DNA from: Paragorgia papillata | Lineage: Eukaryota; Cnidaria; Anthozoa; Scleralcyonacea; Coralliidae | Reading direction: 5' to 3' | DNA length: 64,000 nucleotides | Assembly: GCA_035771165.1 (NCBI GenBank) | Contig: JAWNZC010000372.1 | Coordinates: 400,001 to 464,000 of the forward strand | In this document: positions 10,999-43,255 of the stretch, piece by piece | Layout of the letters: the number at the start of each line of letters is the position of its first letter | Position numbering within the stretch: the stretch's first letter is position 1 | Notes under the pieces: model-generated | Databases searched by the model: none | The model's input: only the letters and a program-made list of their open reading frames with translations | What the model was told of the DNA's origin: nothing | Made by a program: the position numbers and the translations under genes

Positions 10999-11039
10999 TT
11001 TGTAACTAAATCAATAGCAGTATAAACACGAGGCGTCAC

Positions 11040-11400: not shown

Positions 11401-11445
11401 AGCAACGATTCTTTGGGTCAGCGGGAGGTCAAACAAAACTTCAAA

Positions 11446-17254: not shown

Positions 17255-17284
17255 CTGATGAGTAAAATCATTTGGCCTTACACC
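17255..17284. repeat. Left half of a dispersed repeat, cut by the 26-kb transposon
   Basis: GATGAGTAAAATCATTTGG followed by CCTTACACC matches the GAGTAAAATCATCTGGCGTTA family. It stops at 17284 and resumes at 43248 with CTTACACTGAGTAAAA. Joining the two gives a continuous repeat copy. Confidence 0.75.
17277..17284. repeat. Left target-site duplication
   Basis: CTTACACC, matching CTTACACT at 43248-43255 in seven of eight positions. Confidence 0.75.
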
Positions 17285-17417
17285 CACTGATCTCTATAAA
17301 AGGACTGGATAGCGCATCTATTGTTTCTCGTGCCCTGGTTTTGATGCCGGATGAGCAGCGGCGGCCATCTTGCTAGGACCCACTTGGGTCCTAAACAATA
17401 TGGCGTACATAGGAGTG
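17285..17417 (+). repeat. Left terminal inverted repeat of KDZ-like element
   Basis: CACTGATCTCTATAAAAGGA, then GACTGGATAGCGCATCTATTG, TTGATGCCGG, CGGCCATCTT, the short palindrome AGGACCCACTTGGGTCCT and ATGGCGTACATAGGAGTG. The right end carries the same blocks in reverse orientation with a few substitutions and a ~10-base indel. Confidence 0.9.
17295..17302 (+). promoter_or_regulatory. TATA box in left terminal repeat
   Basis: TATAAAAG lies about 100 bases upstream of the ATG at 17400. The same box is conserved in the right repeat, at the same distance from its own ATG. Confidence 0.6.
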
Positions 17418-20004
17418 GAACCAAATTCGAGAAGTTTGCTAAGATTTACCATCGAATTAAGGTTCGTAATCTTATTTTATATAATAGTTAAGCGTTTTGA
17501 ACTCTTTATTCCTTTTACAAAGGCTTTTTTTTTTGCGAAAGATACCTGCCTATGTATTTGCTTCACGAATCACGGTATTAACAAAATAGTCGGTAAACAA
17601 ATGTCTTCCAAGTCCGCACGTGTACTTGTTTCTCTTTATTTTGTAGTATAAACGCCGTATTATTAAATGGTTTACAGTGATGGGTTTCCTTTATGTTTTG
17701 ATTGATTTATTGCCGAGTAATTCAAATGAAAATTCAAATTTGGAAAAGTTCCAGCATAAAACCTTATAGTCCATTTGCTACCTTATATGTTTCTTTAGGC
17801 AACCTTGTTGCCATCCTTGTTGCCATCAGAAGTGTATTGTTTTTTTAAGGTTTTGTACTCACATGGTCTATAGAAATAAATTAGCTTGCAATGCAATTTA
17901 TACAATAAAGGCCTTCATGGAGGCATAAATAATAGTGAGATATTATAAAGTATGATTGGTCGGCTTTTCAATGAAAACCAGCTAAACGTTACATTTTTAC
18001 AAGCAAATGCACCTGTTGATATTACCATTTCTGCAGAGTTTCTGGGATGCCAACTAAAACTCTATATATAAACATCTATTGGACCACTTGTGCTGTTGTA
18101 CATTGACGGCCAAGGAGTAGTTCAGGCGGCAGGTAAGAAACTAATCCTTCCTATAACTTCTCTGTGTACTTTTTTAGAACTATATATTTACTTAAAATTG
18201 CAATAGACTATTGCATGTAATATAATTATGCGTTGGTTTGTGTTTTAGGAACTCCTAAGCTATGTGACGATGTAAAGGATGTTGCATCACACATTATGTG
18301 CAGTTATGTAGAAAAAACTGTTGAAAATGATTCTGCATATAATTCAGGTACTGTAACAGAAGATATCGAATATATTGAAATCAAGTGCAACATAACTCAG
18401 TCCATATTCTTTCTGTTCTTTTTAATATCCACTAGAAGAGATTCCCGAGTCATAGTCCATAAGACCAGATTTGATTGACCCTAGAGCTATTGATGAAATC
18501 ATGTCTGGTCAATGGTCAGTCGATAGATTACGAGAAGTTGTGTTAAGTCTGGTGCTACCTGAAAAAGCCAAAGGTATCTTGAAAGATATTTCATCATTTA
18601 CAGTTATCGCCTTAAATAACATGTCTATTAATTTGTACATTTGCATTCCCATTATTTCTTTCATATTCTAACCCAAAAAATGGAGCAGATAAAAGCAATG
18701 GAAAGGGAGTGAAACATATTAAAAATTTCTGGCGATGTGCAGAGAAACCAAAATTCTGGCCACGCGATATACCATTCTGTTCGCATTCAGAAAGAGAAGA
18801 GATTACAGAAGGTAAATTAATAACAATTATGAATTACATGGTCAAATCCGTATATGAGTAACAAAGAATTTTGCTAAGTATTTTACATGATTTGCATTGT
18901 TAATTTAATTTTCAGGACTAGAGACTAAAAGGCGAAAGATTCTTAACAAAGAGGCACTGACGAGAATAATAGTGTCTTATATGAATTTTGTTAAAGAGTG
19001 TGTATCTGTCAGTTACGATAACACGGCTCATAGTACATATGAAAACGACTAAGTCACATATAACTTCCTAAGTATGAAATAAGAGGGCAGTTTATCAACC
19101 AAGGTTTTCTTCACATAAATCGTGTATTATTTTGTCAATGTTTCATGTTTCATTTTGTAGATGAATGATAATACGCCAGACAGCGTAAACCAACCGGACG
19201 TTGACTAAGCGTAAACTAAGCAACGTTAATCGTTTGACTAAAATCAATTATTTACATAATCTGACAAAACTTGAATGAAAAATTTCTTAACGTTGCGTCA
19301 ACCTATAAAGCCTTCTCCAACAAAATATACGTTTTAATAAATTTATAGGTAATTACATTGAATCTCACATAAACATATTACTTCTTTTCTGATTAGAAAG
19401 TTAAAGAGGAGATAAATGAAGAAAAAGATCCAAAAAAATAATGACAAGGTTTGTATACTGACAATATTACATGCACCTCAATTGTTGTTATTAGGAAAAC
19501 AATATTGATTATATAGAAAAAATAAAAAAATGTATAAGAAAAACTAGTAATTAGTAATTTCATACTTCAAACTCCGCATAGGTACTTATCAATTTAATCT
19601 AAAGCTACACGATTTTATAATAATCATCTCTGCTGAAAGTCTGAGACAGGAATGAGTTAATATAAAATAATTTAAGAATAACAAGCAAGAACTTTTCATC
19701 ATACCTTTGTTCAGGAAACAATGTTTGAGCAAACCAGTTGTCATGGGGAAAGTGAAGGCGAGACTCAAAGCCAAAGGAGTTTACATGAAATGTACAATAT
19801 GGTAAGCAATGCGGAAACATTATTTATATTTATAATATATAACTATTTTTTACACTTGTATATATAGTATACCGCCAATTAGTATATAATATTGTGATGT
19901 ACCATTCACAATTTTACATTCATTTGAAGTAGCTGATCACTACGTATATCAATCGACTAATTTATTAACATTTAATTATACATGCATGCATGGTGAGTAT
20001 ATAG

Positions 20005-20215
20005 CATAGGCGTAGAGTTTTGTTTTTGTCCAGGGGGGCTGAAGTGCTGAACAGGACCTTTTCAAGAATTTTCCCGTCGGAGGCGTTTACAAAAAGGGAC
20101 TCTTCTAGGGGGGTCCGGGGACATGTCCCCCGGAAATTTTGGAAATTTAGGGTCTTGGAAATGCCATTTCCTACATTCTGAGGGGTGATTTTTAAGAACA
20201 CTGAAGGTCATGAAA
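20005..20215 (-). repeat. Dispersed repeat fragment with GGGGACATGTCCCC core
   Basis: This compact block contains AGGGGGGTCCGGGGACATGT followed by CCCCCGGAAATTTTGGAAAT, unlike the AT-rich surroundings, and lies between protease exons. No second full copy is in the window. It looks like an inserted repeat. Confidence 0.4.
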
Positions 20216-21830
20216 TGTCATAAGTTGACTTATCACTGTATATGGGTGCTTTTGGCTGACAGGAATGAGGTTGTAACACTTACTTTAGCCTAACGAGTAA
20301 CCTATAATTTGTGAATGGTGATTGATGAGTCAGTTGCTGCAAAGTTTCTGTGGGGGCGGGCTCAGCCCCTCCATTAAGATTTCTAATATTAAGATTAATA
20401 TCATAAAAACAGTTTGCGGAAAAAAAGTTTGTGACGAAGATGTAATGACTGCAGCCCATGAAATTATTGAAACTTTTGATGGCCACCACCAACCTGCAAG
20501 CAGTCATATTAGGTATATATTATATAAAGTATACTGTAGTTTATTAAATGTTCGTGAAATTACATAGCTCATTTTGGATTATATACTATTTGCAAGCCAG
20601 CATGAATTGTATAGACGGAGCTGCAAACGCCGTTCCGAAATCAGTTAAATGACAGGATACAGTCATATCTATAGCGTGTAAAAACCTAGTGTAATTAAAG
20701 AACCTGGAGGCGGAATTTAGTATTTAGATCCCCAAGCATGTATATGAACTTTTTCAGCGCAAAAAAACTTAGATATCAGTTTAAAAACTTAGAAATTCAG
20801 ATATTTTTTTTTTTATTGTTATCAGTAACTTGATTGTGCAAGGTTATCGAATGACTGCATGTTTAGCTGGATTTTCTTTCTTTTGAAAACAAACGAACAA
20901 ACAAAGGAGTACCAGCCGTTTGAATTAAGATATATCTAGCCAAAAACTGCTATAATTATCAAAATGTCCTGGGTACGAGGTTGCTATAATTATAACAATC
21001 AAATCTAGGTTACAAGCTTGTTTTTTGTTTAAGTTTCATACTCGTGCACGTTTATATATCTAGTTCAGAAAATGCCGAAAAGAAAGGACTTCCAAAAGGC
21101 TATAATTGCAGTAAAGAAGGAACCCTGTACAGAGCATTATCAATGGAACCAGAAAGATTAAAAGCAGATGTTCTTTTCTACGGAGTTGCACCTGTGAACC
21201 ATTTGGCTTCCGAGGTGTGACCATAATAATATTACTATTATAAATATTATTATTAATATATTATTTAATTTAATTTATGTTTAAATAAATATTTTATCAT
21301 TATAGTGTTGATTATTCTTTATACTAATAATATCGTAAATATAATTATTAACTTATTATTAATATCATTATCTTCTAGTGGTATTGCTGACCCGTAAGCT
21401 AATTTTAAATGAAACAGAAATTATCGTGCATGCATGGTATTTCATGTAGTATTATTCTTTATATATTCCAGCGATCAATAACACTTTTTTTATTAGATTT
21501 GATTGATCATATTAACTAAAATTTAGTAAGAGTTTAATTGCCTAAAAAAGATGTTTTTAGCTCAGATACGCTTTTACGCAGGTTTATGCGTGTGCTTCAC
21601 TGCTCACATGCGCAGCTCCATCAAATTGCCTTAAAATAGAAGCATGTTAAAAAGCAAACTCCCTCTCCAAACTAAGCCACTCTGAACACGAAATAATTTG
21701 GCTGATAAGTAGTGGTAAAAACATGCCAAAAAACAGTTGTTTAACAGATAAAATCTACGAAAAGCAGACCGTTCCTTAACCATATCGATCAATTAGAATC
21801 GTTGCTATTGATTTTCCAGGCGAAAAACGT

Positions 21831-22283
21831 AGACGTAAAATAAAGATTAATGCCCAGCTTATAATTCTCATAGTTATCAAATGCAAAACAATGACATCTC
21901 GTCAATACCGCTCTTTTATTTTAATTTTATTCTTCCTTCGTTCTTTCCATGTTTTGTTTTATTTTATCCTTTCCTGTCACTTATCCTTCAACTGTTATTA
22001 TCTTGACCCTACGACCTTTTGTATTATTTTAGTTTATCCCCTTTAAACTATTGTTTTTGAATTTTAAATTTTTAAATTCGAACTTTAACCATTTTTTAAT
22101 GTAATGTAACACTTAATTAGCTCACATGAGTCATATATATGTATCATCTTGTAATATTTTAATCACTCTGAAGATGTTGCGGTTTGCAACGAAACGTTAG
22201 TAAATATATATTCAAACTTTTATTATTGTCATGGTCTCGCATTTGAGAATTATAAGCTGGGCATTAGTCTTTATTTTACGTCT
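21831..22283. mobile_element. 453-bp MITE inside protease intron
   Basis: AGACGTAAAATAAAGATTAA at the left, with GCCCAGCTTATAATTCTCA, is mirrored at 22240-22283. Just inside the right end lies CTGAAGATGTTGCGGTTTGC with AACGAAACGTTAG. The insertion coincides with a break in exon phase between 21214 and 22325. Confidence 0.75.
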
Positions 22284-24681
22284 AGATAAAATCTGTATAT
22301 ACTAATTAAATGCCGTATTTTTAGGCTTGGTGGTAACGAACACAATGTACTTTAAGTGCGTTGCAGGGGCATTGAAAATTTCGCTTGATGTTTGGAACCC
22401 AATACACGAGCTTTTCGATGTGTACTTTCCTTGCCAGTGCGATCTAACTACGTCCGAGATGAGTCGCCCTACCATATCAATTGCGAAAAGTACAAATGAT
22501 AGCTACGTACTCATTGAAGAACGTAAGCGGGCGACTATAGAAACAAAACGGAAATGCCAAGTTACGAGTAAGCATATTATTGTTATATATAAACGTATAT
22601 ATGTACTGTATATTGGAATATTTGTGTGCTATTTTTATCCTATGTGAATTTGGCTCTTTTTTATTTAAACATTTTGTATTGTTTCACCACCCTAATTGGC
22701 CACCAATACGTAAGTGAAAACTATCCTTAATAACGGGTCTTCCATGCGGTAAGGTTGAAGGTAAATTATTGTAAGTTCAAAATAAAATTTCTCTATATAT
22801 GAACTGTAAAAATTCCCAAACCATTGTAGTAAAAAATAAAAAATTATCAAGAGATATTTTCTAATTATAATTTTATACTTATAATTGCATTTATAGGAGA
22901 AGTTGGAACGCACATAATGAAAGGTGTGTCTTACATTTACATAAACGATTTAATGAACATAAAAGTACTCTACATGTACTGTATATGTTAAATGTCGCAA
23001 CAACAAAAATAAAAAAAGACAACAAAAACCTTTTCATATTTTTAAGAGTTACATGTCTCGACGGAATCAGTATTTACAGAAGGGATATTCGTTCACTTGA
23101 TGAAGGAACTTGGGTGTGTGACAGCGTAATCGATTTTGTTTTAAAGTAAGTAAAACGTTGAAAAACAAGCTCAAAAAATAGTGGGTGGTGTGGTGTGGTA
23201 TGGTGTGTAGTGCAGTCTCAAAGATGGGATTCGGATAAACAATGCTCTACAAAACAATTATACCCAAACACGTTTTTGTCATATATACATATATGTATTA
23301 TAGTTTACAGGCGGAAATAGAAAATCAGAAAAATTTTTGCCATCCATATCCAAACTACTTTCGACAGAGGCTGTTGATTGAAGGATCAGTGTACGTACAA
23401 TATAGTATGTAATTATCAATCTATCTAATACTACAAATCCACTGACAATTATAATTAAAAACAATTCATAGATTCGAAAAACCGCTTAATCTAAGTGGAT
23501 GTCACATCGATAAAGCTGACAAATGGACACCACAAAACCTCGACAAATTTAAATTTGTTATGGTCCCTATATGTGACATTTAAGTATATTACTTCTTCAT
23601 TTCGTTTTCAACATTTTCAGATCAGTCATAGTAACCTAGTAATATTAAATAAATGTGAGTGTTTTACTAGAAAACAAGCAGTGACATTTTCTCTGTCTTC
23701 ACTATCGATGAATGTCACTTACCGATTTTACATTGAATCTATTATCTTCTCGTGGTAAAAAAACCTGAGGATAACATTTATATTATAACATTTAATATTC
23801 GTTCATCAGTTAAAAATAACATCTATATCTTCGTGCAATGTCCTGTATTCGTTAACCACTTCCTCTTTAATTTAAGGGTGCATTGGTGGGTAATTGTCTA
23901 CGAGATTCAGACTGGACAGCTTTATGTGTTGTGTAGTTTGGGTTGGCGAAAAAAAGCAGCAGCTGAATCACTGAAAAAGTAAGATCAATCGTTGAAAAAA
24001 AAATCCCTCAAGCAATTTTCAAAAATATTGGAAATTCGTCTAAAACTATCTTAACTGAAAAAACCCCACCTTTTTTTACATTAGTAACAAATCAATCATA
24101 TTGTGTGTAGGTACTTCGAACACGTTCGAAAAGAACAGTCATGGGTGAAGGAAATCCCACCAATTTCTAATCCAACATTTGTACAGGTAAACAAAAGTTC
24201 ATGCGCAACAAACCGACTGTATATACAAAACATATACATGAAGTTTTTGGTAAATCAAAAAGTACTGTTTTTAATTATGGCATAGGTTTCAAGACAAACA
24301 AATAGCTTTGACTGTGGCGTGTTTGTCATTGAATATGGTAGCAAGATAATGCAAATATTAAATGGTGTAGCAATTTCATTGACATACTTCAAAATGAACA
24401 ACTTAACAATTATTACTATGACTTGTCATCATTAACAGGGCGAAATCGGACCAAATCTTGTTAAAAGAGATGAGGTGCAACAACGAAGGAGATATTTAAA
24501 GCAACTTATCGAAGAACACCCAGATAGTTAATTTATATTATATTGCAAACATAAATGTACTAAATATAGTGACTTTAATACAGTGGAAATGCAAATATCT
24601 TGATTCTTTCTTTAATTTCAATTTCAACTAAGCTATTTGAAATATTTACAGTTTTTATAAATTTAAAATTAGTATTGAATA

Positions 24682-25305
24682 GGCGACTTGCACTAAGAAG
24701 TCACATGACCTCAATCTTAAAATAGCTGTTATGGGATTATAACCTTATAAAACGGATATAGGTAAAATTTCTAAATTTTGATTTTCAAAACTGTAGCATG
24801 TCACGTGACTATAATAAAAAATTCATGCATGTCCAAAATGTTCTACAGTCAAACATCAAGAAACATGTAGAAAAACGGTTTGATATCGAGCATGCTAATT
24901 TTTAGCAGAAACAAATAATTTTTAGCAGATCAAAACATATTTTGTTTTTGGCCGCCATGTTGGATGACACAAATTTGCCATATATCCAACATGACGGCCA
25001 AAAGCAAAATACACTTAGATACCGTGAAATGGCATAACTCTTGCTAAAACTTGACATGAACAACATTAAACTGACTCGTTACATGTTTCTTGTAATTTGA
25101 GTGCAAAATTAGCTTTTGAAGAAGATTTTGTACACGTGAAATATTTATTAAAGTCACGTGACCAGCAACACTATCGCCGTTTTCTCCAAGACAATGCAAG
25201 TTTTGAAAATCAAAATTCCGAAATTTTACTTATAATAGCGTTATAATTTTCTATACCTGCTATTTTAAGAGGATTGTGATCACGTGATCTCTTGTGCAAG
25301 TCGCC
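24682..25305. mobile_element. 624-bp MITE with TA target duplication, between the two convergent genes
   Basis: GGCGACTTGCAC at the left and GTGCAAGTCGCC at the right are flanked by TA on both sides (24680-24681 and 25306-25307). Further inward, GATTTTCAAAACT and GTCACGTGAC blocks are mirrored, as is GGCCGCCATGTTGGAT near 24955 around the centre. Confidence 0.75.
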
Positions 25306-25447
25306 TATTGTTTGAGCAGCAAATTGTACAAAGCAAAACAACAAGATGAAAATACAATAATAAAACGTGTGGTTTCCTTTCCTTTACCCTTTAAATATAG
25401 ACGTTTGTTGGACGTTCGTCAAGCTCAAACACTCAAAAAAAAATTCT

Positions 25448-25523
25448 GAGCCCCAAACAGAGATTGAACCTGCAACCTTCTAATGACCGGTTAGACACTC
25501 TAACCATTGAGCAACTGAGGCTC
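25448..25523 (-). repeat. tRNA-like sequence (Thr GGT-like), probable SINE or pseudogene
   Basis: 76 bases fold partly as a tRNA: acceptor GAGCCTC/GGGGCTC, D-arm GCTC/GAGT, a perfect 5-bp anticodon stem TCTAA/TTAGA with loop CCGGTCA, and a wobble-rich T-arm around GGTTCAATC. C instead of T at the position before the anticodon and extra bases beside the acceptor stem argue against function. A T-run follows on the minus strand, as for Pol III termination. Confidence 0.5.
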
Positions 25524-26524
25524 AGACACAGTATAATAAATATTCATTGTCATTAAGAACTACAATAGAATATACAAGCTATCTATGCAATATTTTACTT
25601 AAAGGCAAGAAGAATTCCTTATATTCAAAATTTCCTTCAGGAAAGTTCCGAAATAGACGAATCATATTTTTGTGCCAAATGTATAAGCGACAAAAACTAA
25701 CAAAATTTTCATATTCCATATACGATACCATTGATGCAAGTGGTTTGATCACTGAATTACCCTGTTCAGCAGTCTGGGTGTTATATGTCCTCAATGTTGG
25801 ATACAAGGAAATGTTATATATATATATGTGTGTGTGTGAATATATGAATTCATACATCCATACAGCAGAATTTCAGTCCACCTTTGTGATTTTTCCAATG
25901 AAATTTATCCACCACAAACTTCGTCTGCTTAAAAAATGCAGGATCTCGATTCAAGCAATATTCGTGAAGCCTGCATGCATTGTCATATATTACTAAAGAC
26001 GGTGCTGAAAAAAGAAAATAAATGTCGAAAACAAATCAGAGTAAACAATCAGTTATCATTAAAAAAGACAGATAAACAAACACACAGTATATTTCTTACA
26101 AAAATCGTTAGAAAGGTGCAATTTAGTTACCTTTAGGAAAACGGGTGCGAATAATTGTAAATGGTATATTAGGATATGTTATATTAGGACATGCATCTTT
26201 TGTACAAGAGCCATATTTAAAAATTAACAAACTCTAGTCCCCTACTCCCAAGCAAGTTCAATTTTACAGCTGTTTAACTTTAAACAACATAAAGTTGTAA
26301 ACAGTGCGTGGAACAGTTGTACAAGTCTTTCCGTGCCACTGCTATTTCATGACGTTATTTTGGTACACATACAGGGGCAAGTTTTCATGTGAAAAAAGTT
26401 TAAAACTCTATAGAATGTACTGTACAGTAAGCTGGTATGTAGACCTAAATTCAAACAAAATTGATTTAAGTAAAATAAATGCCCCAAAAAATACTGTAAG
26501 TTTACTTACGAGAAAAAACAATTA

Positions 26525-26695
26525 ATAATCTAATCTAATCTAATTTAATCTATAATGTAATTTAATCTAATTTAATTTAATCTCATTTAATTTAATTTAG
26601 TTTACTTTAATTTAATTTAATTTAATTTAATTTAATTTAATTTAATTTAATTTAATTTAATTTAATTTAATTTAATTTAATTTAATTTAATTTAG
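26525..26695. repeat. (TTAAT)n/(AATTT)n microsatellite abutting a transposase exon
   Basis: An almost pure pentanucleotide array, degenerate on its left side. It starts right where the transposase frame loses its expected sequence. Confidence 0.95.
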
Positions 26696-28849
26696 AGCGA
26701 AAATGTAAAAAGGTTGTGCAAAAAACATTGTTTTGACACAATTAACAAAATACAAAAAATTCCAGGTATAAGGGTACCATGTCGCTTGGTAGACCTTCCA
26801 GGTTTAGAGCAATCGCCCAATTGACTATTCTTATTGTCAAGAACATATTTCCCTCTTTGGACGAGTTGCAGAAGGCAAGGAAGGTAACCATACGACGTAG
26901 TATTCTCATTCGATGGTGTCAAGTGATGTGGAGTCCTACATTCCCCATTGTTGTCAAGAAATGGTGCCAATGATTTTTGTACCAGCTCCCGGAGAAGACG
27001 ACGCAAATTTTCTGGAACATCATCATTTTCTTCCATTATGTGAAAAATAACTGGCACTTGGTCTTGCAGAAGTTTAAGTTGTGTGGAGGGACTGTCTTTT
27101 GGAATGGTTCCATTTGCCACAGCCAAAATAAGTTCTGAAACCTCAGGTAACGGTGGGATAAAGGAACAAACTGACTTATCTGACAATAAAGCCAGCAAAA
27201 GTCGTTGGCAAGGCTCTGGCAAATTGAATATTAGACCATTTTCCTCGAGGGAAACCAAAAAAAGTTTCAGACCTTCAGATGCAATCTAAAAAAAATGACA
27301 GAAACTATTGCATGCATATTTCGCTGTAAGATGTTTTAATATATATGAGTTTATTATATACAACTCTTTTCTGTTGAGGTCAGTATTGAACGTACCGTTT
27401 TGAACCGCTGAAAGCTAACATTTTTAAACAAAATAAAAACATGATCTGAATGCCATATAAATGAAAGTAAAATATTCAAATAGTAAAAAATAAATAGTAA
27501 ATTTAATAATAAGTCTCGTAATTCTCCGGCAAGAATTATCAGACTATCAGACTACGACAAAAAGACACTAAAAGTGGCAATAAACTTGAAAGTTTTTTAG
27601 GAACGTTTACAAGAGAACTGGTAACAACGATATTGTAATAAAAATTGTAATAAACCAATTTTTGAGTTTTGACCACGCTTGTTCAGTCTGTGCTATTGAA
27701 ATATCGTACCTCTGTTTTTCACTCGCTATAACCCGATATTTCATTAGTAAAGATCTCACGCTTCGTCAAAGAATAGTACATGCAATCATCCATGTATAAA
27801 TACACCATATTATAGACGCACTAAAAGTACCTCATTTTTTAGCGGTTGAAATTCATTTTCTGCAAGTCCACCAATTGCTAACTTTTTCAGATTACTGCGA
27901 ACATTACGTCGGTTTACAAAATTCCGCATTTCAAACCTAGTGTTGATAAAAAACGACAAATTCTATATGATAATATTTCATTATTTAGCTAAGCCACAAA
28001 TTTTAAGCAGTTGAAATAGATAATTTTATTTAAAACTTATCTTCCATCAAGGATTTCAGAATCCAACGGTGCTTCATTATCTTTCATTGGCAGGTGCGTC
28101 TTTTGAATACCCAGAGTTGTTCCATCCATAATAAGTTTATCTGGAGTAATTCCGCATTCTGGGCAATGAAAACCTTCTCGATATTCAATATCCAGCAGTC
28201 TAAAAGTAATTAATAGCGGTTTTTAAATAATAACGGACTGGACGCATCACAGCCAACCACAGCACGTGATTTCAACGGAATTAACTTGTGTCATATAATA
28301 GTGTAAATAGCCGATGCGGAATGGTTATACTGTAAGTTTATACATGAACAAGCTGTTATTGTTACTGATATTCAGAATTTAGATTTTGGAAAAGGCTTGT
28401 GATTTTTATGTAAGTTTCAAACATGCTACTGTATACAGTACTATTTAAATTCGTCATCATTACATTTTATTACAAACCTGATTATAGCAATCACTGCAAG
28501 ACGAAACTTGGTATATGTAATAAAAATAGTTACCAGCAGAAAATTGTCTATGGATGTATGTGACATAGTATTTATACATTGGAAGCCTAATAGAAAGTGA
28601 CGACACATTAGTTCTTGTCTATAAACCTCGTAAATTGTGTAACATTAAAAGCCATAATTAACATTAAGGAATAATACAAAACGATCGGCTAAAATGAATG
28701 GTATTTACAAAACAAGCAAAGGCAAAGGCGAGTTGTTGTACATGAAAATCCCATAAAGTTTGGACGCAAATTTAAGTATATATTATATTTTATTTATCAC
28801 ATTTACACGTCAGTTAAGTAGTAGAAATGAGATGAGCACTTAAATTCTG

Positions 28850-32770: not shown

Positions 32771-32815
32771 CACTGTAATGCTGTATCGAAATAACTGAAA
32801 ACACAGCTTTAGTTC

Positions 32816-34632
32816 CAACCTCGTACCCAGGGTCTTTTCAACCCGCCGCGCTGGAAAAGACCCTGGTATCGGCTGGTCACGTGTCTCCCAGAATCTGGGA
32901 GATAGAAATTGTCACAAGGGAGGGGAGGTTATATTTCAATTGGTCACACGACACTGATAAATGCGCGAAAACGCCAAAGAGATTTTGGAGAAATTTTTCA
33001 CTGAGGTCTCACAATGTATGAATCGTTGAACTTAAAATATCTGTGTTCTTGAAATGTTTACATTTTGCTTTTGTACTGAATAGCGATTATTCGTCTGTGA
33101 TCCTGAAACCAAAGCAAATGACGTGTTGGGTTTAGAGGCAGTTAAACGCTGTAAGTAAGACACATTCTGGTGGTCCTGCCACTGGCTACAGAAAAATATC
33201 GATGATATTCCATCTTTTTCCTGCATTGTTATCACACAAGAACAGGAGATCTTTAAGTTTCCTACTACAAGTTCTATCTCCCGTCATTTCTTCTTTGAAT
33301 TTCCTCATATACACGCGATCAAATACTCAGGTAAACATTGTACGGTGACTAGAGGCGCTGTTTTGAGCTTTTCAAAATTGCTCGAGTACAGATGTTCATG
33401 CATGTACTCGATCAAACAAACATTAACCTTCTAAACTCTAAAGAATGGGGGTTATCATGAACGAAATTTAAAAGGATATAAAAAGAGCTAAAGTTCGTTT
33501 ATTAATGAGACAAATATGTTATGTCGAGGTTTATGTACATGCATAGGAATGGTGCTGCAATCTTAAATCTTGCATCAAAATGTTTTTCACAAGCAATTGT
33601 ACGGAGTTATAAGATACTCAAAATACATATTTCTTATTTTGTTTGAAAAGCCCAGCAAAAATAACCCAGAAAGGTGTGATAGTTTTCGCGGCGGCAACGT
33701 ATCTTTAGAAGTTTGATTCGATAGGTCAAAGCACGAGTGACAAGAACAATTCAACAACGTTCAAAACAAACTCATAAAATTTTAATTAATAAAAGCTTCA
33801 CAAAAGGAATGTTTATCTAACTTTTAAAAGGACTGACAAGTGTTGTTTTCTTAAGCGGTCTAATAAAAGAATTGGAAAACGTAATTTACACGTACGTATT
33901 TCTACATGCACATGACAATGCGGTTTCTTTATCATTGCGTATGTCGAAAGAACACGTATTAAATATAACATAAACAAGACAAACTTTACCTCTTCGTCTG
34001 ATGTAAATGCTAACTGTTTTATTAGAGGCTGATCCCGTCAGCGCATTTCCTAGGAGCTTAAGCTAGCCACACACAATAGAAAGGGAGAAATTCCCACGCA
34101 TCTCTTGCTAAACTGCTATTTATAGTGTTCGAGCGCCGTTTCGACTTTGTTGAATTCTTGACCTAAATTTCTTTAAATTCCAAAGCCTTCTTTTACGTGG
34201 GCCAGCATACCAACCGAGCTCGAGGAAGATCGTCGTGACTCTCCAGAAAGTGTTCTAATGTTCCCCAAATAATTGCGATTGTTGTTCTTACCGAACCACA
34301 TAGTCTACAGACTGCAGGAACTTCATTATCTCCGACAATTGGATTTTTAGGATTTAACTCAGAGATTTAACTCTGGATTTAACTCGGGGTTTAAAGCTGT
34401 TGATGATCGGAAGAGACGTTGCCAACTTTCCACAGATATTGTATTCGCTTGTGCCCATTTACATCAACTCCTGTTTTATGCATCTGCAGAATCGATTGTT
34501 TATCCGACCTCCGCACCCCTCCACCCTAGTAATAAAAAATTGTTATCTCCCAGATTCTGGGAGACACGTGACCAGCCGATACCAGGGTCTTTTCCAGCGC
34601 GGCGGGTTGAAAAGACCCTGGGTACGAGGTTG
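32816..34632. mobile_element. 1.8-kb non-autonomous element with 9-bp target duplication
   Basis: CAACCTCGTACCCAGGGTCT at the left is mirrored at the right end, and the inverted similarity runs about 85 bp through CGGCTGGTCACGTGTCTCCC. CTTTAGTTC flanks both ends (32807-32815 and 34633-34641). Each end is itself a small hairpin (CCCAGGGTCTTTTCAACCC against GGAAAAGACCCTGG). A 9-bp duplication and long ends fit a Mutator-like element. No transposase was recognised inside. It lies in the transposase intron of the 26-kb element. Confidence 0.8.
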
Positions 34633-34899
34633 CTTTAGTTCTACTATCACCACATACATTGTCATTGATTTCATGGTGTACATACCCAGATGTCAGAAAT
34701 AGATGTTATAATCCTTCAGGGTGGCATGAGAAATGCCATACGATCCAAACGATACAATTCTATTTTCAGATCCGCCATACAATTTCGTATTGGTGCAAAC
34801 AGAGCAACGTCGATAATAAACTTAAAAATACAATAAAAAACTAACAATGTATGCATGAAATGAGTGGCTGTTACACATTTTTTGTAATTGATGATCTTG

Positions 34900-35510
34900 G
34901 CAACCTTCATAATTTAATTTAATCAAAAAAATTAAAACGTTTTTGCACTGCTAATGGCTCTTCGTCAGAGAAAAACTTGACGAGTAGTGGGTCGCAGCGC
35001 ACAAATCTCTTTGATTTAACCTTTTTATATACAATATATTGCTTTTGTTCTCTCTTTGACAAAAAAAACCAGTGCTTTGCTCCAGAGGAGGTTGGACAGC
35101 TGCCGCAAAGCATCATGGTCCTAACGCTAAAATTGATAAATTATCGATTCATTTGCATCTGACCGCCGACGAGGAATGAACTCTGCTCGGTGGACTATAT
35201 GCGCAAAAACTTTTGAAAACTCGTCACACTCGATCCAGAATTGTTAAATCTGATGGTCAGAAAAATACGAGAACAATTCTTGGTTATCATAGACAATTAA
35301 TATGCTCAGATTGTGCTTTATTTGGCGTATATTCGTGACAATGGCGGATGGGCATTCAAGACTACCGAAGTTCTTTCGGATTCGACGCATTTTATGTTAC
35401 AAATAATGGAACAAATCAGAAACGAATTAGATGTTTACAACAAAGAAGGATTTGGTTGTGCTGTGCAACGTGTGATTCGTTACAACTGGAGAAAAGCGTG
35501 AGGTGAGAAA
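34900..35510. other. Unassigned region with short open frames
   Basis: On the minus strand 34919-35116 reads through KRFVRCDPLLVKFFSDEEP, and on the plus strand 35313-35501 reads through STHFMLQIMEQIRNELDVYN. Neither has a clear start with splice sites, and I recognise no family. They could be debris of an inserted gene or chance frames. Confidence 0.25.
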
Positions 35511-36689
35511 TCAACATTATTTGTTGTTTAGTGGTTAATGATTTCCCTCACAAATTTTTCCTATTCTGTAACCTTAGGATGCATTTTCCGTGGTTTAATG
35601 TTTTGCATTCTGCAGTATTACTGTAAACTTCTATAACTGTTGTGTGTAGCAATTATCTGGATCAATTAGATACAACTATCATCCTTGGTTTGTTTTTTTC
35701 TCTCCGATTTCAGTTTAACAAACAGTCTTGAACTTTCCTTTTATACTTACTGTACTTGTATCCCAAATTTTATAAAATTGTGAATAAAGCTAGCTTAAAA
35801 TTTATTATTCAATAACAATCTTGTATTTTTCTTTATAATTAAGGTGAATTAAAAATCGAGATAATTTATTGGATTGCCTCCAGAATCTATTGATAAATTT
35901 GGTATATAACTGGACTGGTCAAATATTTCTATTTTATCAAATAAAGTGTATTTCCTGTATCCTCAATATATATGTAAATAAGGAACTTGAATAAAATTAA
36001 AATGTTTTGTCTCAATATTGATCTTGGTTACTTCTAAAGCACCACTGTATTGACACCGATACAGGTATTCAATCAGTGGCATTGTTAACATTGGTCCAAC
36101 ATTTTTGCAGTGAAGCACCCCCCCCCCCCACCCCCCCCTGCCAAGAAAACATCAACTTTGGCACATTTAGAGATGGCATCAGAAAAGTTACTGTATTAAG
36201 GTAGACATGTGAATGAACTATAAGACAGACAATGTCCAGCCCAAGGGTGTCTGTCTTAGACATAGTTCACTGTTTATCAGTATGTACATGCAGTAGCCAG
36301 TAGCACTCAAAGGCATGCAAAGGGATGAATAATATCCAAGCATTTAATTAGGCTTTGAGACCCAGCATTTGGATTGTATAATAATATACAAGATAATACT
36401 TCTGTGTTAAAATTTTATTAGTTATGTCCACAATTATTATGCATTGCCTTATGTAATTATACAACATGACAACATGCAAAACTTCAAACTACATATTATT
36501 TGAATGTTATTTAGTAAAAGAGAATCCATCAATTTATCATTGTAAAAATCCAGTTCAGATTGGTGCTCGTGCCTGGGCACTCAGTCTGAACACCACCAAA
36601 GTAAGTTTTTCCAACACTGGCATCTGTACTGTATCTCTTCACTTCCTGTAAAAAATACGATGTGAGATGGAGTTACTCTTTCATATCTT

Positions 36690-36925
36690 AAAACTATTGT
36701 ATTCACTTCATGGGTGTACAAACCAAGGGGTGGACACAGGAGCACATGCCACCCCACCCCCACCCCCACCCGCTTGGTTAGAAACAAAAAAGCCCTTTAT
36801 CAGAAACCCTTTATCAGAAGACATGTGCCTCAAGGGTCATTTTGAAGCTCTGCCCTGAAACAAGGTACTTTTGAAAGTGTACACTTCCCCCACCCCCATC
36901 AGCTTGCTTCCTACATCACTGACTC
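36690..36925 (-). repeat. Inverse copy of the GGGCACTT-type repeat
   Basis: The C-rich stretch CACCCCACCCCCACC is followed by AGACATGTGCCTCAAGGGTC and ends near CTTGCTTCCTACATCACTG, the reverse of the arrangement at 30200-30425. The rest of 36926-38008 shows no feature I can name. Confidence 0.55.
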
Positions 36926-39900
36926 AGTTGAAATGGACAACTGGGGCAAAAGGGATAATAAATATTTGTATACTGAAAAACAATACGAACAACAAATTAT
37001 AACAAATTAGCAAAAAATGAAAAAATACTACAACTACAATATATTATTCACAATAACAATGACCAATAATAAACTACAAATATTAAATCCACACATCTAT
37101 TTTAATAATCATACTGCTGCGGTGGAACACGTTATTTAATATATAAAAAATATCTATACATATCAGTTCTGTATACAGATATAGTAGATCTTTAAGAAAG
37201 TTAAGTACATTCTGTATGCAGGCCTGATATGTATACAATTTTCCAGAATGATGGTGTTTTTATACAGCGACGTCAGCGTTTTGGACTATAAAAACAGACA
37301 AATACCAAATTTTACTATTTAATAATTGTCCACCACTCATTCTACCCTTACTCTAAAGAATAAAGCTCGAAATATTAGGAAACTTCCAAAATTCTTGAGA
37401 GAACAAGCTTTAGTGGCGAGAGGCTCTCTTAAATTATTGGATGCCATCTTAGCAAAAGCCGAAATGCCATGGTCGGTTCAATGGCGAATATCTCGAAAAC
37501 GGTGAGGGGATCGTTGGGGATCGCCTGCATAGAATCCAAGATTAGACATTTCTTCAACTTATTACGCAAAAATTAGAGAATTCGAACCATGGGAATTCGA
37601 GATTTTTTGGTTTGAAGATTGTTGACAAACCGGAAGTGGAGTCTTCGCTTAGCGCGACACGACCTACATAAACGATCAAAACAAAGTAGAAAAAATACAG
37701 TTACCTTGCAAAATCCTGCAGATATGGATAGTCCAACAATATATGAAACGATATCACTGTTTTTTTAAAGAAAAAAATCAATGACAACAGCGTAATATTC
37801 GGTATTCTATAAAGTCCAATGCAAAATTTTCAGCCGATCAACGATAAGAAAATAGCGCAATTTCATTGGTCGACAATATCACGTGACAATCACATGACAG
37901 CTGTCCGGCCTCCTCTGGCTTTGCTCGTAGCATTAGAACTCTCTTTTGAGTAAAAGCACCAAAAGCCCTATAATTGATTTTTTTGTGATCTGAAATAATA
38001 TTACATACCATTTACTCTTGTCATACAATACATGTACGCAATTACACAATCCTCAATATGAAGCCAATCATCTTCAACTGGCCCCAATTTCCACAATGCC
38101 CCACACTGGCAGAAACCACTATTTGATGCAAGAATAGCTGAACCATTGTGTTGGGATAGCATTAGATGATCACTGGCATCACCATGCTCACCTATCATAC
38201 AGTATATTGGGGGGGGATCTAATGAACACACAAACATGGCACATAAATGCGTGAAATCAAGTAAAAGGAGAGTTTTAGTACTAGTCTTACTGATATTCAA
38301 ACTACAGTAGTACTGTACCTGTTGGTAAAAATAATGGCACCTTTTTTTCACTTCTAGTTATGAGTTCAAAGTAATCCCTCATGTCAGGAGTCACCTCCAT
38401 GGCAAATTTGAACAGCGACAATGGAGAGTTGTCAGCAACTTTTTCAGTGGCTATTTCTGAGGAAAGAGCAGCTATATGGTTGCACTGAAAGGAGGAACAA
38501 GTGGAGCACCTTAGCTGAGGCAATGGGGGATTCACCTTTGTATATACAAAAGTGCTAACTCCCCATTGACCTTTGCATGGTTTTACTGCTATCCACCTTG
38601 ATCCTCCAGGGACAGATCTAAAAAGAATCTGAAATAATAATAAACATTAATTAGATAAAAAAACAGCGCAATTTAACCCCTTAATTTTTCTTTTGTCACC
38701 AACGTTGCCTCCCACCATTTTCCTTTTTCTCCTTAACTCGTACTTCCATATACAGAGGCTACACAGACTAGACAAAAGCATCATGATTGATAATTATGAA
38801 GAACGACAGCATTTTATAATTTTTTCAAAGTTTACATGTACCATGTATTAATTATGTACATTGTACAGTGCACAGTATCAAAACATATTAAATATATCAA
38901 AATTAAAATGAAATATATACAGTACTTAAGGAAGATAAGAGAGTTAAATACCAAAAGGATTTGAAATTGTTAGCTAAAAAATAAACTCTGAAGAAACATA
39001 CTCGAGGTGGTTCCTCTTGGCTATATAAATGTTCACTATCATCCATGCCTTCAACTCCTGCAAGAAACAGTAGAGAAAACAAAAGACAGACAATTAGTAG
39101 TAACAAAAATTATATACAAGTGGAGGATGCTGGTAAAACAAAATAAGTCAAAACTTGTACAGATGTACTTAGCAAGTATTAAGTAAATAAGCAAGCAAGC
39201 GAGCGAGCGAGCAAGCAAGCAAACAGCATATTTCAGCAGTACAGTATATCTAACCTAAACTATATTTCGATTGTTGTTTCAACACTGCTTACACAGTACA
39301 TACATATATATACTGTATAACATACTTTGGTCAAATAGTTCCTGTACATTGATGTTGTACTTCTTGTCATAGCTGTTTAGGAATATTGTCATTGCTGATA
39401 TATGGAGGCAGTCTGCATAAGGGATAGCTATGAAAAATTCAAACAAAATCATTGTAGACTTGTCTAAGTTCTGCATATCTAAATTTTAATAAAAATAATT
39501 AGCATAATCATATAATGTCAATGTGTACATTACCTTTACCAAGTCCACCAGTCACAAAAGGATTGAGTGCTCTAACAAATTCCATACGGTTTTGATTGCA
39601 CGAGAAAGAATAGGCCCATTCATATCCCACTGATGTCTTATGAGCAGCCCGAAGCACAATACGTAAGATGTGTACTAAAAGAACAAATCAATATATTTGA
39701 AAGTGTTCTTTAATCTATGTCACATTACAGTAACTACCTATTAAGCAACCTTCTGAGCAACAGTCTACTTAACCATTGACCTATAACTGTACTTAAACAC
39801 ACAGTGACAAACTGCAGTGCTACAGTACTGTACCGTGGATTACAGTATATCAGAATATAAAATATTAATCTCAGAACTTTTTCTGAGTACCATACACATG

Positions 39901-41239
39901 TAATAATAAATATTGTTTGACAATTATAAACTTCTTTAAACATAAATACCAACCTGGTTTATCAAAAACTTTAAAAACTTTAACACCCACAATGTACATG
40001 TAATTATAAGAATTTATATAACAATGATTTTGAATATTTATAAATGTTTACTGTACCTTTATATTTCTTTTTTCAACATGATAATCATATGCCACAATTC
40101 CCACAAATGATGTACTATTAACTAGTTCTGCTACATAATCAAATTGCAACAGCAATTGTGAATAATGGTGTGTTGGTGACAGAAACGTCTATAATAGAAA
40201 GATTTTAAATAATAAAAAAATTGGTCTAAGTAATAAATAAATGGTCTGGTTCCTTTGCTTCAGAACAGTGTATAATAATCCGGAATAAGGCATTACTTAC
40301 TGTAACTATAAAACTTCTTAATTACATAAATGTCAAAATATATATGACAATAAGAATACTACAGTAAACAATGAAGCTCAGAAAATGGTAAGCTAATGCA
40401 GTTTTAAATTACCTTTTTTTCTGGTCCTTTGTCTTCCACAAAATCTGTTTTAAAACCACATGTATCTTCCCTTGCATCAAATTCCTAATAGTAAAACAAA
40501 GACTTTTTAGACTTTAGACTTTTTACAAAATCAATCATTATGAAAAGAACAAGTTTCCACTTGCCAGGTTTACATTAATTTAGGCAAAGTGTGGTTTAAC
40601 AGTCCAAAAAACATTAGTACCAAGCAGAGGTCATTGAGGTCATCAATCAAATATGACAAGTAACTTTGCTCCAGGAGTTTATACTGTAGTTTAAATCATA
40701 ATTCAGGAAATTGCATTTCCAAGAATAAATTTTTAAATATCAGAAAATAAATATTATTTATTTTTTAATATTATATTATTTTTTAATATTATCACCTTCA
40801 GCACTTAAATATTATCAGAAAACATGTACATGTACCTCTTGATTGTTTTCAGATTCCTCATTCGAACACGCTTCTTCAGTTTTAATATCATTCTATAAAT
40901 TAAAATATGTTTTATTTACATGTGTTTCATTTGTAAATGAGAAAAAAAAGATTTGGGACAGATTTAATATCAAATATCATATACTGTAATTATGAAGTTT
41001 ATAATCAGCCTGATGGATAGACAGGTCATTTGCCAGTGTAGGTCCTCATATGGAAATGAAGACCAATCTTTGTTCGAGCACACATTTACAGTACATGTCC
41101 AGTGATCTACAGACACTTCAACAGATTCCATCTGCTGGTAATAGGCGACCTTTTGGCCTAACCAATAGTACAGGGGTTTTTTTTAAAGTGAAGGAATCCT
41201 AAAGTGCAGTCCTCTCTCCACTCACATTATAAATACTAA

Positions 41240-41470
41240 AGTTGGAAAAATTGAACATCGACAAGGGTGGTGGAAGAGGGGGGGGGCTAATAAGGGGGTT
41301 ATAGCCCCTAAATATTTCTAAGGGGGCTAACCCCCCACCCTCCCCCCCAATATCTTCAACAATGGGGGCAAAATACAATTTTTATCATTCTATTGATGAA
41401 TTAGCCCCTCCAATATAAAACATCTTCCACCACCACTGAACATCTTCTGCTGCCACTGAACAGTGATGGT
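41240..41470. repeat. G-rich dispersed repeat with internal inverted blocks
   Basis: AGGGGGGGGGCTAATAAGGG is answered by GGGCTAACCCCCC and AATTAGCCCCTCC, and the ends share a CATC-TTCCACCACCACTGAAC-like stretch. It is non-coding and lies in a transposase intron. Confidence 0.45.
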
Positions 41471-43121
41471 GCCACTTTTCATTACTGTTATTTCTTACAA
41501 CATACATTACTACGATAGTAGCTTACTAAGATAAATATGTATTACTTAATTAACTCTTTCTTGTCCGATCCGAAAACCAGTCACAGCAGGTGGTCTTGGC
41601 AATTTGTGAATTAACATGGCATAATAACACAAAAATAATACCACAATATATCATTTGAATCGTTTTTACCTCTACTATTCAAATTTTGGGTTTTCGGATC
41701 TTGTCAGACAACCCATTTTGCAAATTATGCTAATTTATGCTAATTACTACTATTAATAATATTATTATAATCCAAAAAATGTTAAATATTTAACGAGAAA
41801 TGACTTTACACCAAATTTTGGATCATGTAAAATGAAAAGCAGCATTTCACAAATTCAAATTGAAAAAATTGAAGCAATACAATAAAAAGCAAATATTATA
41901 TTGATTTTTTATGATTTTCCATTGAGACCCCCCATTGTGACCCCCCATGGTGCGGCCGCGAGCGATCATATAACTTATTTTGAAATTTACAAATTTAAAC
42001 AGAATTATACAAGAACATACGACCAAAATACATCAGTAAGATCGTTTTTAAGTCAGCTATTCAGATTTTAAGTTATTTTGAGTGATATTTACTCCTGTTT
42101 GCCATTACAACGCCGACAACTCGCCGACAACTCTCGGCGAATTTTCTTCGATTTTGCCTGACTCGGCCGAGATGGTTTTCGTCAAATTTTACCAAATTAT
42201 TGCTAATCTACGAAATAATTACAACAAACAAATGCTTATACTTACTTTCGGAGTTGTTAGAGCCTAAATTTTCGTTGGTTTCGCTTATATATTGACAAAT
42301 AAAAGCCATTTTGTTCTTATCCATACTCCATGATCCTCGCGGGATTTCAACAGAAGGGAAGTCAGGTCAGAACTCGGGTAATACTTCATGGCATATCGTT
42401 ATAAAGGTCTTATTTTAAAAAGGGATCATTCAGGATCATTTTAAGCCCTAGGGGGGTAATTTTGGTCAAAACCTCGCAGGTTCACAACAAATCAAAGTGA
42501 TCCGTCACCAGTAGCGGATGACAATAGGGCCGGACAACTAGGAACAGTTCTTGGAGTATTACAACCAACATTTTTAAATAATATGTACATGTACCTTGTA
42601 TCAAAATTCCCTATCCGGATGTATATTAACGTAATATTTCATATAGTAACACATATTTAAGCTTAATAAATGTAGCCACACGTTACTGTGCATAATATAC
42701 AGTACTGAAATGTTCAGAAAGAAAAATACCTTGCGTTCTGAGTCTACTTTTCTTCCTTCGTCTCTAAAATAAGAGCCAATCCGTGGACGTTTGTATTTTA
42801 ACCCATATTTATAAATTTAACAGCAGTTGACTCCTTCACAGTTGTATAAGATAAACCTGCACAGCACAGGCTACAGCCACGTGACACAAAAATGGCTGCG
42901 CTTAATGTTTACTAGAAAAAAACAAAGCAAATCAATTTGCTTACGATTTTGCCTTTGCAAACGAGAAACAAATATTCAAAAAACTATTTAAAAATAAATA
43001 AAAGGTCTTTGAGTAGATATCTAGCATTTTTACGGCACCGTTTGTATGTTTTAAACACCTTTCATTACCCCGGTTGCATTCCCGGTTGGATATACCGTTT
43101 TTCGGTAGCGAAATATACCTG

Positions 43122-43247
43122 CACTCCTATGTACGCCATATTGTTTAGGACCCAAGTGGGTCCTAGTAAGATGGCTGCCACCGCTCACTTCCGGCATCAA
43201 TTCCTGAACAATAGATGCGCTATCCAGTCCTTTTATAGAGATCAGTG
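43122..43247 (-). repeat. Right terminal inverted repeat of KDZ-like element
   Basis: Reverse-oriented copy of 17285-17417 with the same TATA box, AGGACCCACTTGGGTCCT palindrome and ATGGCGTACATAGGAGTG start region. Here the start runs into CAG/gtatat, a possible splice donor. Confidence 0.9.
43230..43237 (-). promoter_or_regulatory. TATA box in right terminal repeat
   Basis: TATAAAAG on the minus strand, facing into the element toward the transposase ATG at 43139. Confidence 0.6.
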
Positions 43248-43255
43248 CTTACACT
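43248..43255. repeat. Right target-site duplication
   Basis: CTTACACT. The following GAGTAAAAA resumes the dispersed repeat that stops at 17284. Confidence 0.75.

What the first reader, a model, noticed from the sequence alone, without database searches (positions are those of the whole stretch)
17277..43255. 26-kb KDZ-like transposon with two convergent genes, DDE transposase and Ulp1-like protease
Seen: ~130-bp inverted ends, an 8-bp target duplication with one mismatch, a minus-strand gene carrying D (MDGTTLG), D (IYDNACRLHEY) and E (TAEQGNS) motifs plus cysteine clusters, and a plus-strand gene with HWWVIVYE and FDCGVFVIEY. Known: KDZ/Zisupton transposases carry cysteine clusters and, as I recall, make 8-bp duplications. 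Inferred: the SUMO-protease-like gene is a component of the element, which may define an animal KDZ lineage with its own protease.
Basis: partly seen in the sequence, partly recalled or inferred. Interest (0 to 1): 0.93.

Follow-up and report, generated by a model that had tools for sequence, protein, structure and literature searches.

The report
Motif-targeting KDZ transposon nested in another
What looked like one 26,000-base jumping gene in a probable coral genome is two, one lodged in the end of the other; the inner one carries a transposase gene and a gene resembling a protein-cutting enzyme, and its family's end lies 18 bases from the same short DNA word (ATGGC) at 21 of 28 places checked, so it likely chooses landing sites by that word.

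Summary
The features are real: inverted ends, flanking 8-mers matching at 7 of 8, D/D/E motifs, and a convergent Ulp1-like gene. The transposase lineage is KDZ (octocoral homolog P0002 46.6 bits, cut-off 26.6; the window's copy 21.5); the Ulp1 exons score 30.4 (cut-off 20.7). But this is not one transposon. The ends belong to a family of mostly ~2.5-kb elements: 16 of 16 other pairs fetched lack both genes, 14 of 16 have perfect 8-bp duplications. The gene unit has its own end at 43121 (CAGGTATATTTCGC), lodged in the right terminal repeat. That end recurs at 35 places (up to 2 mismatches); of 28 exact copies, 21 have ATGGC at 18 nt, 2 at 19 nt, 5 none nearby. So the unit likely inserts at a fixed distance from an ATGGCGGAC-like motif; a later deletion likely removed its left end. 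Ulp1 and transposase exons lie tail to tail at 3 loci, one ancestral pair; Ulp1-like exons at C404/C413 and C114 have no transposase match. This copy looks dead: a frameshift, a missing splice donor, no catalytic Asp. The far end, target duplication and tethering protein are unknown.

The parts
17277..17284 (.). left 8-mer flank CTTACACC (target duplication of the outer TIR element)
   Evidence: matches 43248-43255 at 7 of 8
43248..43255 (.). right 8-mer flank CTTACACT
17285..17417 (+). left terminal inverted repeat (L-type) of the outer element
   Evidence: 39 other near-full matches at 95-98% among 40 of 633 candidates scored
17285..18064 (+). left part of the outer TIR element
   Evidence: mostly 83-90% to the ends of the 16 short elements; the match stops at 18062-18064 in 15 of 16 (L018 at 17585)
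43122..43247 (-). right terminal inverted repeat (R-type) of the outer element; homology stops at 43122
   Evidence: 95-98% to other copies; in all 32 ends of 16 short elements the sequence continues GGAGTGGAA, here it breaks into CAGGTATATT
43135..43139 (-). ATGGC target motif inside the right TIR, 18 nt before the inner element's end
43103..43121 (-). terminal sequence CAGGTATATTTCGCTACCG of the inner (KDZ-Ulp1) unit
   Evidence: 35 places at up to 2 mismatches in the genome; L083 and L084 99.67% identical up to it, unrelated beyond
18074..43121 (.). inner KDZ-Ulp1 unit, left end missing
   Evidence: 18074-43073 shared with C415 (91-93% in the long blastn pieces, 97% of aligned bases over 18.1-25.8 kb), 20491-43022 with C11, both without 25.8-39.3 kb and without the TIR ends at these borders; C415 and C404/C413 have other sequence left of 18074
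18065..18073 (.). 9-bp junction between outer-element left part and inner unit, taken as a deletion scar (inferred)
23470..24435 (+). Ulp1/SENP-like catalytic region, predicted exons about 23470-23577, 23878-23978, 24111-24186, 24286-24435; His, Gln, Cys kept, Asp position is Cys
   Evidence: Pfam Peptidase_C48 30.4 bits, cut-off 20.7; SENP2 alignment; same residues in C415 and C11
18485..22567 (+). further predicted upstream exons of the Ulp1-like gene (18485-18573, 18743-18811, 18916-18997, 21064-21214, 22438-22567), low confidence
   Evidence: home-made exon model; similar DNA in C415; no Pfam match for this part (protein 4, which lacked the 18916 exon)
25579..38628 (-). KDZ transposase gene: exons 38628-38319, 38191-38009, 34821-34696, about 28576-28471 (frameshift), 28216-28040 (D1, MDG; no GT donor where the homologs put the exon end), 27941-27828, 27285-26746, about 26173-26132, 26004-25886 (D2, YDN), about 25796-25579 (E, AEQ)
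   Evidence: tblastn of Xenia P0001, exon model, frames read by eye, alignment with P0001 and P0002
41550..42543 (.). nested ~1-kb repeat inside the inner unit
   Evidence: absent from C415, C11, C396 and C348 copies; 98% copy in L031

Best explanation
The 26-kb block is two mobile elements, one inside the other: a terminal-repeat element of a multicopy family (17285-18064 and 43122-43247) and, lodged in its right repeat 18 bp from an ATGGC motif, a separate unit (18074-43121) that carries a KDZ-lineage transposase gene and a convergent Ulp1-like gene and likely inserted there because it selects targets by that motif. Shown: the two units have different genomic copies, 16 other pairs of the outer ends do not flank the genes, and the inner unit's end sits 18 (21 copies) or 19 nt (2 copies) from ATGGC in 23 of 28 exact copies, with 20 distinct flank sequences. 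Inferred: the KDZ transposase, or a host DNA-binding protein it is tied to, reads an ATGGCGGAC-like site and joins the unit's CAG-tipped end 18 bp downstream. Inferred: the order was outer element, then inner unit, then one deletion that removed the outer element's interior together with the inner unit's left end. Inferred: the Ulp1-like protein is an accessory of the inner unit, perhaps a SUMO- or ubiquitin-like-binding factor rather than an active protease in this family, since its Asp is missing.
For: Outer family: 41 and 40 genomic matches of left and right TIR, the window's own included and one only 38 bp, with 40 of 633 and 40 of 643 candidates scored. 16 inward-facing pairs fetched: 14 of 16 with perfect 8-bp duplications (11 directly, 3 when the left tip is one base longer), 1 with two mismatches, 1 without. 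0 of 16 match the gene unit by blastn apart from small interspersed repeats and one nested repeat. All 32 TIR ends continue GGAGTGGAA, where the window's right end switches to CAGGTATATTT. Inner unit: C415 matches 18074-43073 and C11 20491-43022 without the outer ends at these borders; C396 matches to 43121 and C348 to 43122, and they are 99.67% identical to each other up to there and unrelated beyond. Edge: 35 places (reversed control 4). ATGGC within 35 nt upstream in 23 of 28 exact edges: 21 at 18 nt (C396), 2 at 19 nt; reversed control 0. 20 distinct flanks, consensus ATGGCGGAC; chance of 21 of 28 at one spacing about 1e-57 if edges are independent and bases even. Genes. Tail-to-tail exons at window, C415 and C11.
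Against: The inner unit's left end and its target duplication were not found; at the window's left junction the expected target sequence is absent, so a deletion has to be assumed. 5 of 28 exact edges have no ATGGC within range, and two other matches (C322:5604757, C265) begin inside the edge without it. C11 carries an edge at its left side but none at its right. Most of the 35 edges were not shown to belong to units with a KDZ gene; only 2 other loci with DNA-level copies of this transposase were found, each keeping only its last exon, and neither keeps the edge at the right end. Ulp1-like exons at C404/C413 and C114 have no KDZ match, so the pair is not obligatory. Some edges share the same flank (C38 = C448, C47 = C280, C11 = C396), so they are not all independent. 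The window's own KDZ piece scores below Pfam's cut-off (21.5 vs 26.6). The 7-of-8 duplication would also fit a single 26-kb element.
Confidence: 0.8

Rival explanations
1. One reading: one 26-kb autonomous KDZ transposon with ~130-bp TIRs and two convergent genes; the short elements are its internal-deletion derivatives.
For: TIR pair, 7-of-8 duplication, Zisupton and Dileera make 8-bp duplications (PMC12730594, passages), and the short elements need an autonomous partner, which was not found.
Against: 0 of 16 other pairs contain the genes; C415 and C11 carry the gene unit without these ends at their borders, and C415 and C404/C413 share sequence left of 18074 that the window lacks; the right repeat is broken exactly at an edge that recurs elsewhere next to other flanks.
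Confidence: 0.07
2. Composite cargo: the inner unit landed in the TIR element, after which the whole 26 kb moved as a unit on the outer TIRs.
For: The 8-mers flank the composite at 7 of 8, and both outer tips are intact.
Against: Only one copy of the composite was seen: one TIR-edge junction, and one genomic match of the transposase N-terminal exons. The duplication is equally explained by the outer element's own insertion.
Confidence: 0.1
3. Start-codon trap: the inner unit lacks its own promoter and ATG. Landing 18 bp after an ATG puts its terminal CAG/GTATAT splice donor in phase, so the target supplies promoter and first codons (MAYIGVQ here).
For: ATG plus five codons plus CAG/GT at 21 edges; motif ATGGCGGAC resembles a common Met-Ala-Asp start and a YY1-type initiator site (both recalled); the window's TIR has a TATAAAAG and this ATG.
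Against: 4 of 21 flanks have an in-frame stop, against 3.7 expected by chance, so coding is not selected; no transcript data; the first exons are model guesses.
Confidence: 0.12
4. ATGGC plus a hypervariable 13-nt spacer is part of the inner element itself, not of its targets.
For: ATGGC sits at nearly constant distance in most copies.
Against: In the window ATGGCGTACATAGGAGTG is ordinary TIR sequence of the outer family, present in 32 of 32 short-element ends without the inner unit. L083 and L084, 99.67% identical inside, have no blastn match outside although both have ATGGC at 18 nt.
Confidence: 0.03

Closest known systems
KDZ transposons (Kyakuja, Dileera, Zisupton; Pfam PF18758)
   Same: Transposase lineage (P0002 46.6 bits), D/D/E residues, cysteine-rich region; CA-starting tip, as reported for Kyakuja (5'-CA..TG-3' without TIRs, 7-bp duplications; Zisupton and Dileera 8 bp; PMC12730594, passages).
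   Different: A convergent Ulp1-like gene and a fixed 18-nt spacing to an ATGGC motif; the passages seen of PMC12730594, PMC9297572 and PMC12062965 mention no protease partner. The founding papers (Bohne 2012, Iyer 2014) are not held.
Ginger1 and Mutator elements with Ulp1 domains (PMC2836005, passages); CACTA elements of Chenopodium, whose paper PMC8978399 uses the term Peptidase_C48 (search listing only)
   Same: DNA transposons with a Ulp1/C48-type domain.
   Different: In Ginger1 the Ulp1 domain is fused to the C-terminus of an integrase-like transposase; here it is a separate, convergent gene beside a KDZ transposase. The CACTA arrangement was not read.
Dada, target-specific DNA transposons (PMC3706591; search listing and start of abstract only)
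   Same: A DNA transposon with defined target sites.
   Different: By its title it targets multicopy small RNA genes; here a 5-9 bp motif at fixed distance, in 20 distinct flanks.
SENP/Ulp1 SUMO proteases (SENP2, 1tgz)
   Same: Sequence match (E 0.0011) with the His, Gln and Cys positions.
   Different: Asp position is Cys in all three copies, so activity is doubtful.

Membership tests
KDZ transposase (inner unit) | Match to the PF18758 profile above the curated cut-off | tested here: inconclusive
   Window exons 21.5 bits vs 26.6; octocoral homolog P0002, 55-58% identical to the window's exons, 46.6 bits, so the lineage passes and this copy alone does not
KDZ transposase (inner unit) | D, D and E catalytic residues (MDG, YDN, AEQ) | tested here: met
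   conserved in P0002; the Xenia model lacks the C-terminal E exon
KDZ transposase (inner unit) | CxC cysteine cluster | tested here: inconclusive
   Xenia homolog 18.4 bits to CxC4, cut-off 26.9; no CxC match for the window's exons
KDZ transposon (inner unit) | 7- or 8-bp target duplication of the unit | tested here: inconclusive
   left end lost; no complete copy could be read
Single 26-kb TIR transposon | The same TIRs bracket the two genes in other copies | tested here: not met
   0 of 16 pairs
Outer TIR element family | Paired inward TIRs with 8-bp duplications | tested here: met
   14 of 16 perfect, 1 with 2 mismatches, 1 none
Peptidase_C48 / Ulp1 | Profile match above cut-off | tested here: met
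   30.4 bits vs 20.7 for joined predicted exons; 14.6 for a looser first join
Peptidase_C48 / Ulp1 | Catalytic His-Asp-Cys triad | tested here: not met
   His, Gln and Cys kept, Asp position reads Cys in window, C415 and C11
Motif-targeted insertion | Fixed distance between element end and target motif | tested here: met
   21 of 28 edges at 18 nt, 2 at 19, 5 without

The most novel reading that the evidence does not exclude
An animal KDZ transposon lineage, travelling with its own convergent Ulp1-like partner, is a site-selective transposon: a protein of the insertion complex (the transposase's cysteine cluster, or a host factor such as YY1, bridged by the SUMO/ubiquitin-binding Ulp1-like partner) reads ATGGCGGAC-type initiator/start-codon sites and places the CAG-tipped end exactly 18 bp downstream, so that the element parasitises ready-made promoters, including those in the terminal repeats of other transposons.
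Probability: 0.3. Interest if true: 0.85.

Novelty: new variant of a known kind. Interest (0 to 1): 0.6.

Why it matters
If right, it adds a motif-targeted member to a transposon superfamily for which the passages read here report duplications and tips but no target choice, and gives a simple assay, because motif and spacing are explicit. A 5-9 bp target read at fixed spacing in an animal DNA transposon would bear on how transposons use promoter-like sites and on directed integration tools. It also shows that a convincing pair of inverted ends with a near-perfect duplication can be a nested composite, a trap for annotating giant transposons from one copy.

Tried and rejected
A single 26-kb transposon: rejected (0 of 16 pairs; own end at 43121). 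MuDR-like reading, with the TIRs as promoters and the start codons (MAYIGV) of both genes: held for a while because both TIRs carry TATAAAAG and ATGGCGTACATAGG; dropped when the TIRs proved to belong to another element. Coding selection on the flank ATG: rejected (4 of 21 with stops, 3.7 expected). Protein searches: Ulp1 assembly, 7794 candidates, none at E<=0.001; transposase, 1 relative among 6927 candidates, then 2 among the 7994 scored. Structure of P0002 failed (mean pLDDT 32.7), so no fold search was run. Viral contigs: 22 stretches matched a pattern, none a relative. Purifying selection on Ulp1 exons: not shown; exons 95-100% and overall 97% identical between copies, with indels and stops in the last exon of C415 and C11. 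Empty site: the right-flank search (40 of 275 candidates scored) showed no second place with the 140 bp next to the block. Papers on YY1-type targeting: two searches, 8 and 0 papers listed, none fitting by title and start of abstract.
Full report
OBSERVATION. The described features are in the sequence. The ends are inverted repeats of ~130 bp: 41 bp perfect, a 9-bp indel region, then 66 bp at 94%. The 8-mers outside match at 7 of 8. Motifs are where stated. Local similarity of the ends (score 194) far exceeds 198 random pairs (maximum 32), and a 7-of-8 match has a chance of 0.0009.

THE TWO GENES. A first search with joined predicted exons found one relative, Xenia sp. P0001 (53% identity). 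A profile of window plus P0001 found Paramuricea clavata P0002. P0002 scores 46.6 bits to Pfam KDZ (cut-off 26.6); the window's own exons score 21.5; P0001 scores 18.4 to CxC4 (cut-off 26.9) and has no KDZ match. D, D and E residues align with P0002. tblastn of P0001 places the exons on the minus strand from 38.2 to 25.9 kb. The Ulp1-like exons score 30.4 to Peptidase_C48 (cut-off 20.7; a looser first join scored 14.6) and align with SENP2 (E 0.0011): His, Gln and Cys are kept, the Asp position is Cys. No relative of this Ulp1 assembly was found among 7794 candidates.

THE ENDS BELONG TO ANOTHER FAMILY. The genome holds at least 41 left-type and 40 right-type TIR matches, the window's own included and one only 38 bp (40 of 633 and 40 of 643 candidates scored). 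Sixteen inward-facing pairs were fetched, 14 of them 2.4 to 2.8 kb, one 3.9 and one 4.6 kb. Fourteen have perfect 8-bp duplications (eleven directly, three with a left tip one base longer), one has two mismatches, one none. By blastn none contains gene-unit sequence apart from small interspersed repeats and one nested 1-kb repeat. Of the 16 TIR loci that came with the searches, two are the window's own ends; the other 14 match a short element next to the TIR, several being ends of the 16 pairs, but only 1.5 kb on each side was seen. The match between window and short elements stops at 18062-18064 on the left in 15 of 16 and at 43122 on the right.

THE GENE UNIT HAS ITS OWN END. Two other loci, C415 and C11, hold the Ulp1 exons and, tail to tail with them, the last exon of the transposase. 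C415 matches the window from 18074 to 43073, C11 from 20491 to 43022, both lacking the same ~13.5 kb (25.8-39.3 kb) and neither carrying the outer ends at these borders. Left of 18074, C415 shares about a kilobase, in pieces, with C404/C413 (two contigs 99.8% identical, counted as one locus) that the window does not have. On the right, C396 matches the window up to 43121 and C348 up to 43122; they are 99.67% identical to each other over 2.1 kb up to there and unrelated beyond. In all 32 ends of the short elements the TIR continues GGAGTGGAA; in the window it switches to CAGGTATATTTCGC. So 43121/43122 is a junction between two mobile units. A single deletion from 18064 in the outer element to 18074 in the inner one would account for the loss of the outer interior and of the inner left end (inference).

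THE FIXED SPACING. The edge CAGGTATATTTCGCTACCG occurs at 35 places with up to 2 mismatches (reversed control 4); 28 of them begin exactly CAGGTATATTTCGC. In 12 edges read with flanks, 9 have ATGGC exactly 18 nt upstream, one 19 nt, and two (which match only from inside the edge) none. Genome-wide, 23 of the 28 have ATGGC within range: 21 at 18 nt, 2 at 19 nt; the reversed pattern gives 0 (it prints 24 rows, one edge twice, and for C396 only a nearer ATGGC, so its 18-nt site is taken). Five of 28 have none (C114 twice, C149, C337, C421). The 23 flanks hold 20 distinct sequences with consensus ATGGCGGAC (G 15, G 16, A 14, C 11 of 20 at positions 6-9) and weaker preferences after that (A 13 of 20 at position 13); 4 of 21 18-nt flanks have an in-frame stop, 3.7 expected, so the constraint is on DNA, not on a reading frame. 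The motif resembles a YY1 site and a Met-Ala-Asp start (recalled). Some flanks recur (C38 = C448, C47 = one C280 edge, C11 = C396), through assembly duplicates or a repeated target.

ARCHITECTURE STILL OPEN. Edges at C47 and C16 run into ~330 bp of shared sequence and an array of ~128-bp units; such arrays also lie left of the gene unit in C415 and C11, and C11 has an edge beyond its array.

STATE OF THIS COPY. The transposase has a frameshift in the exon near 28.5 kb, no GT donor near 28.04 kb where the homologs put the exon end, and no recognisable counterpart of the HGICYGFEIMRDHES stretch of P0002 (read by eye). Its N-terminal exons have one match in the genome, the window. The Ulp1 exons of window, C415 and C11 are 95-100% identical, overall 97% of aligned bases; C415 and C11 have a 30-nt longer last exon with a stop; all three lack the Asp. 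The pair is therefore conserved by common descent of three copies, one association, not three. Ulp1-like exons at C404/C413 and twice on C114 have no KDZ match. The other KDZ-related loci in the genome (C86/C289/C448/C23/C304, C112/C1, C110, C152) show no DCG motif, by one regular expression, in the stretches of about 1.5 kb fetched on either side.

WHAT IS KNOWN. From passages of PMC12730594: Zisupton and Dileera make 8-bp, Kyakuja 7-bp duplications, Kyakuja with CA..TG tips and no TIRs. From passages of PMC2836005: Ulp1 domains occur in Ginger1 and Mutator elements. PMC8978399 on CACTA elements uses the term Peptidase_C48 (search listing only). PMC12062965 (passages) notes an F-box isoform of fish Zisupton. 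Passages of PMC12730594, PMC9297572 and PMC12062965 mention no protease gene beside KDZ. Four searches (10 of 10, 12 of 12, 25 of 68 and 25 of 119 papers listed) showed no title or abstract start that describes such a pair; the founding KDZ papers are not held. Two searches for YY1-type targeting found nothing fitting.

VERDICT. Observation confirmed; KDZ and Ulp1 identities supported; the single-transposon reading rejected; a nested composite with a motif-spaced inner element put in its place.

Noticed in passing
window 43608-44822 (-): 404-aa open frame with DUF3504 (38.9 bits) and phage-integrase (28.1) matches, Crypton-like; its end has at least 7 other genomic copies at 96-98% (40 of 275 candidates scored).
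   Followed up: partly
window 25448-25521 (-): tRNA-Thr-like sequence with anticodon GGT inside the gene unit, possibly a tRNA-derived repeat.
   Followed up: no
L047-L051 and contigs C86, C289, C448, C23, C304: A second KDZ-related family, several copies with a 317-aa open frame without stops; three exon pieces of the other families tested alone (L047, L044, L040) get no Pfam match. No Ulp1 motif within the fetched flanks.
   Followed up: partly
own genome C114:747938-748322 and 848656-849873: Two Ulp1-like copies 44-51% identical to the window's; neighbours not read.
   Followed up: no
L094, L095, L071, L073, L075: Arrays of ~128-bp units next to the edge family carry a 28-bp piece of the terminal sequence (43081-43107) in many units, possible subterminal binding sites.
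   Followed up: partly
own genome C11:5488455-5490419: A variant of the outer TIR family (3 mismatches in the tip) forms an inward pair 1.96 kb long just beyond the C11 copy.
   Followed up: no
window 41550-42543: About 1-kb repeat, 98% identical to one in L031, absent from the C415, C11, C396 and C348 copies: a recent nested insertion.
   Followed up: partly
window 1-17000: Dense inverted repeats left of the block; most of the 25 longest pairs listed, 66-128 bp, lie there.
   Followed up: no
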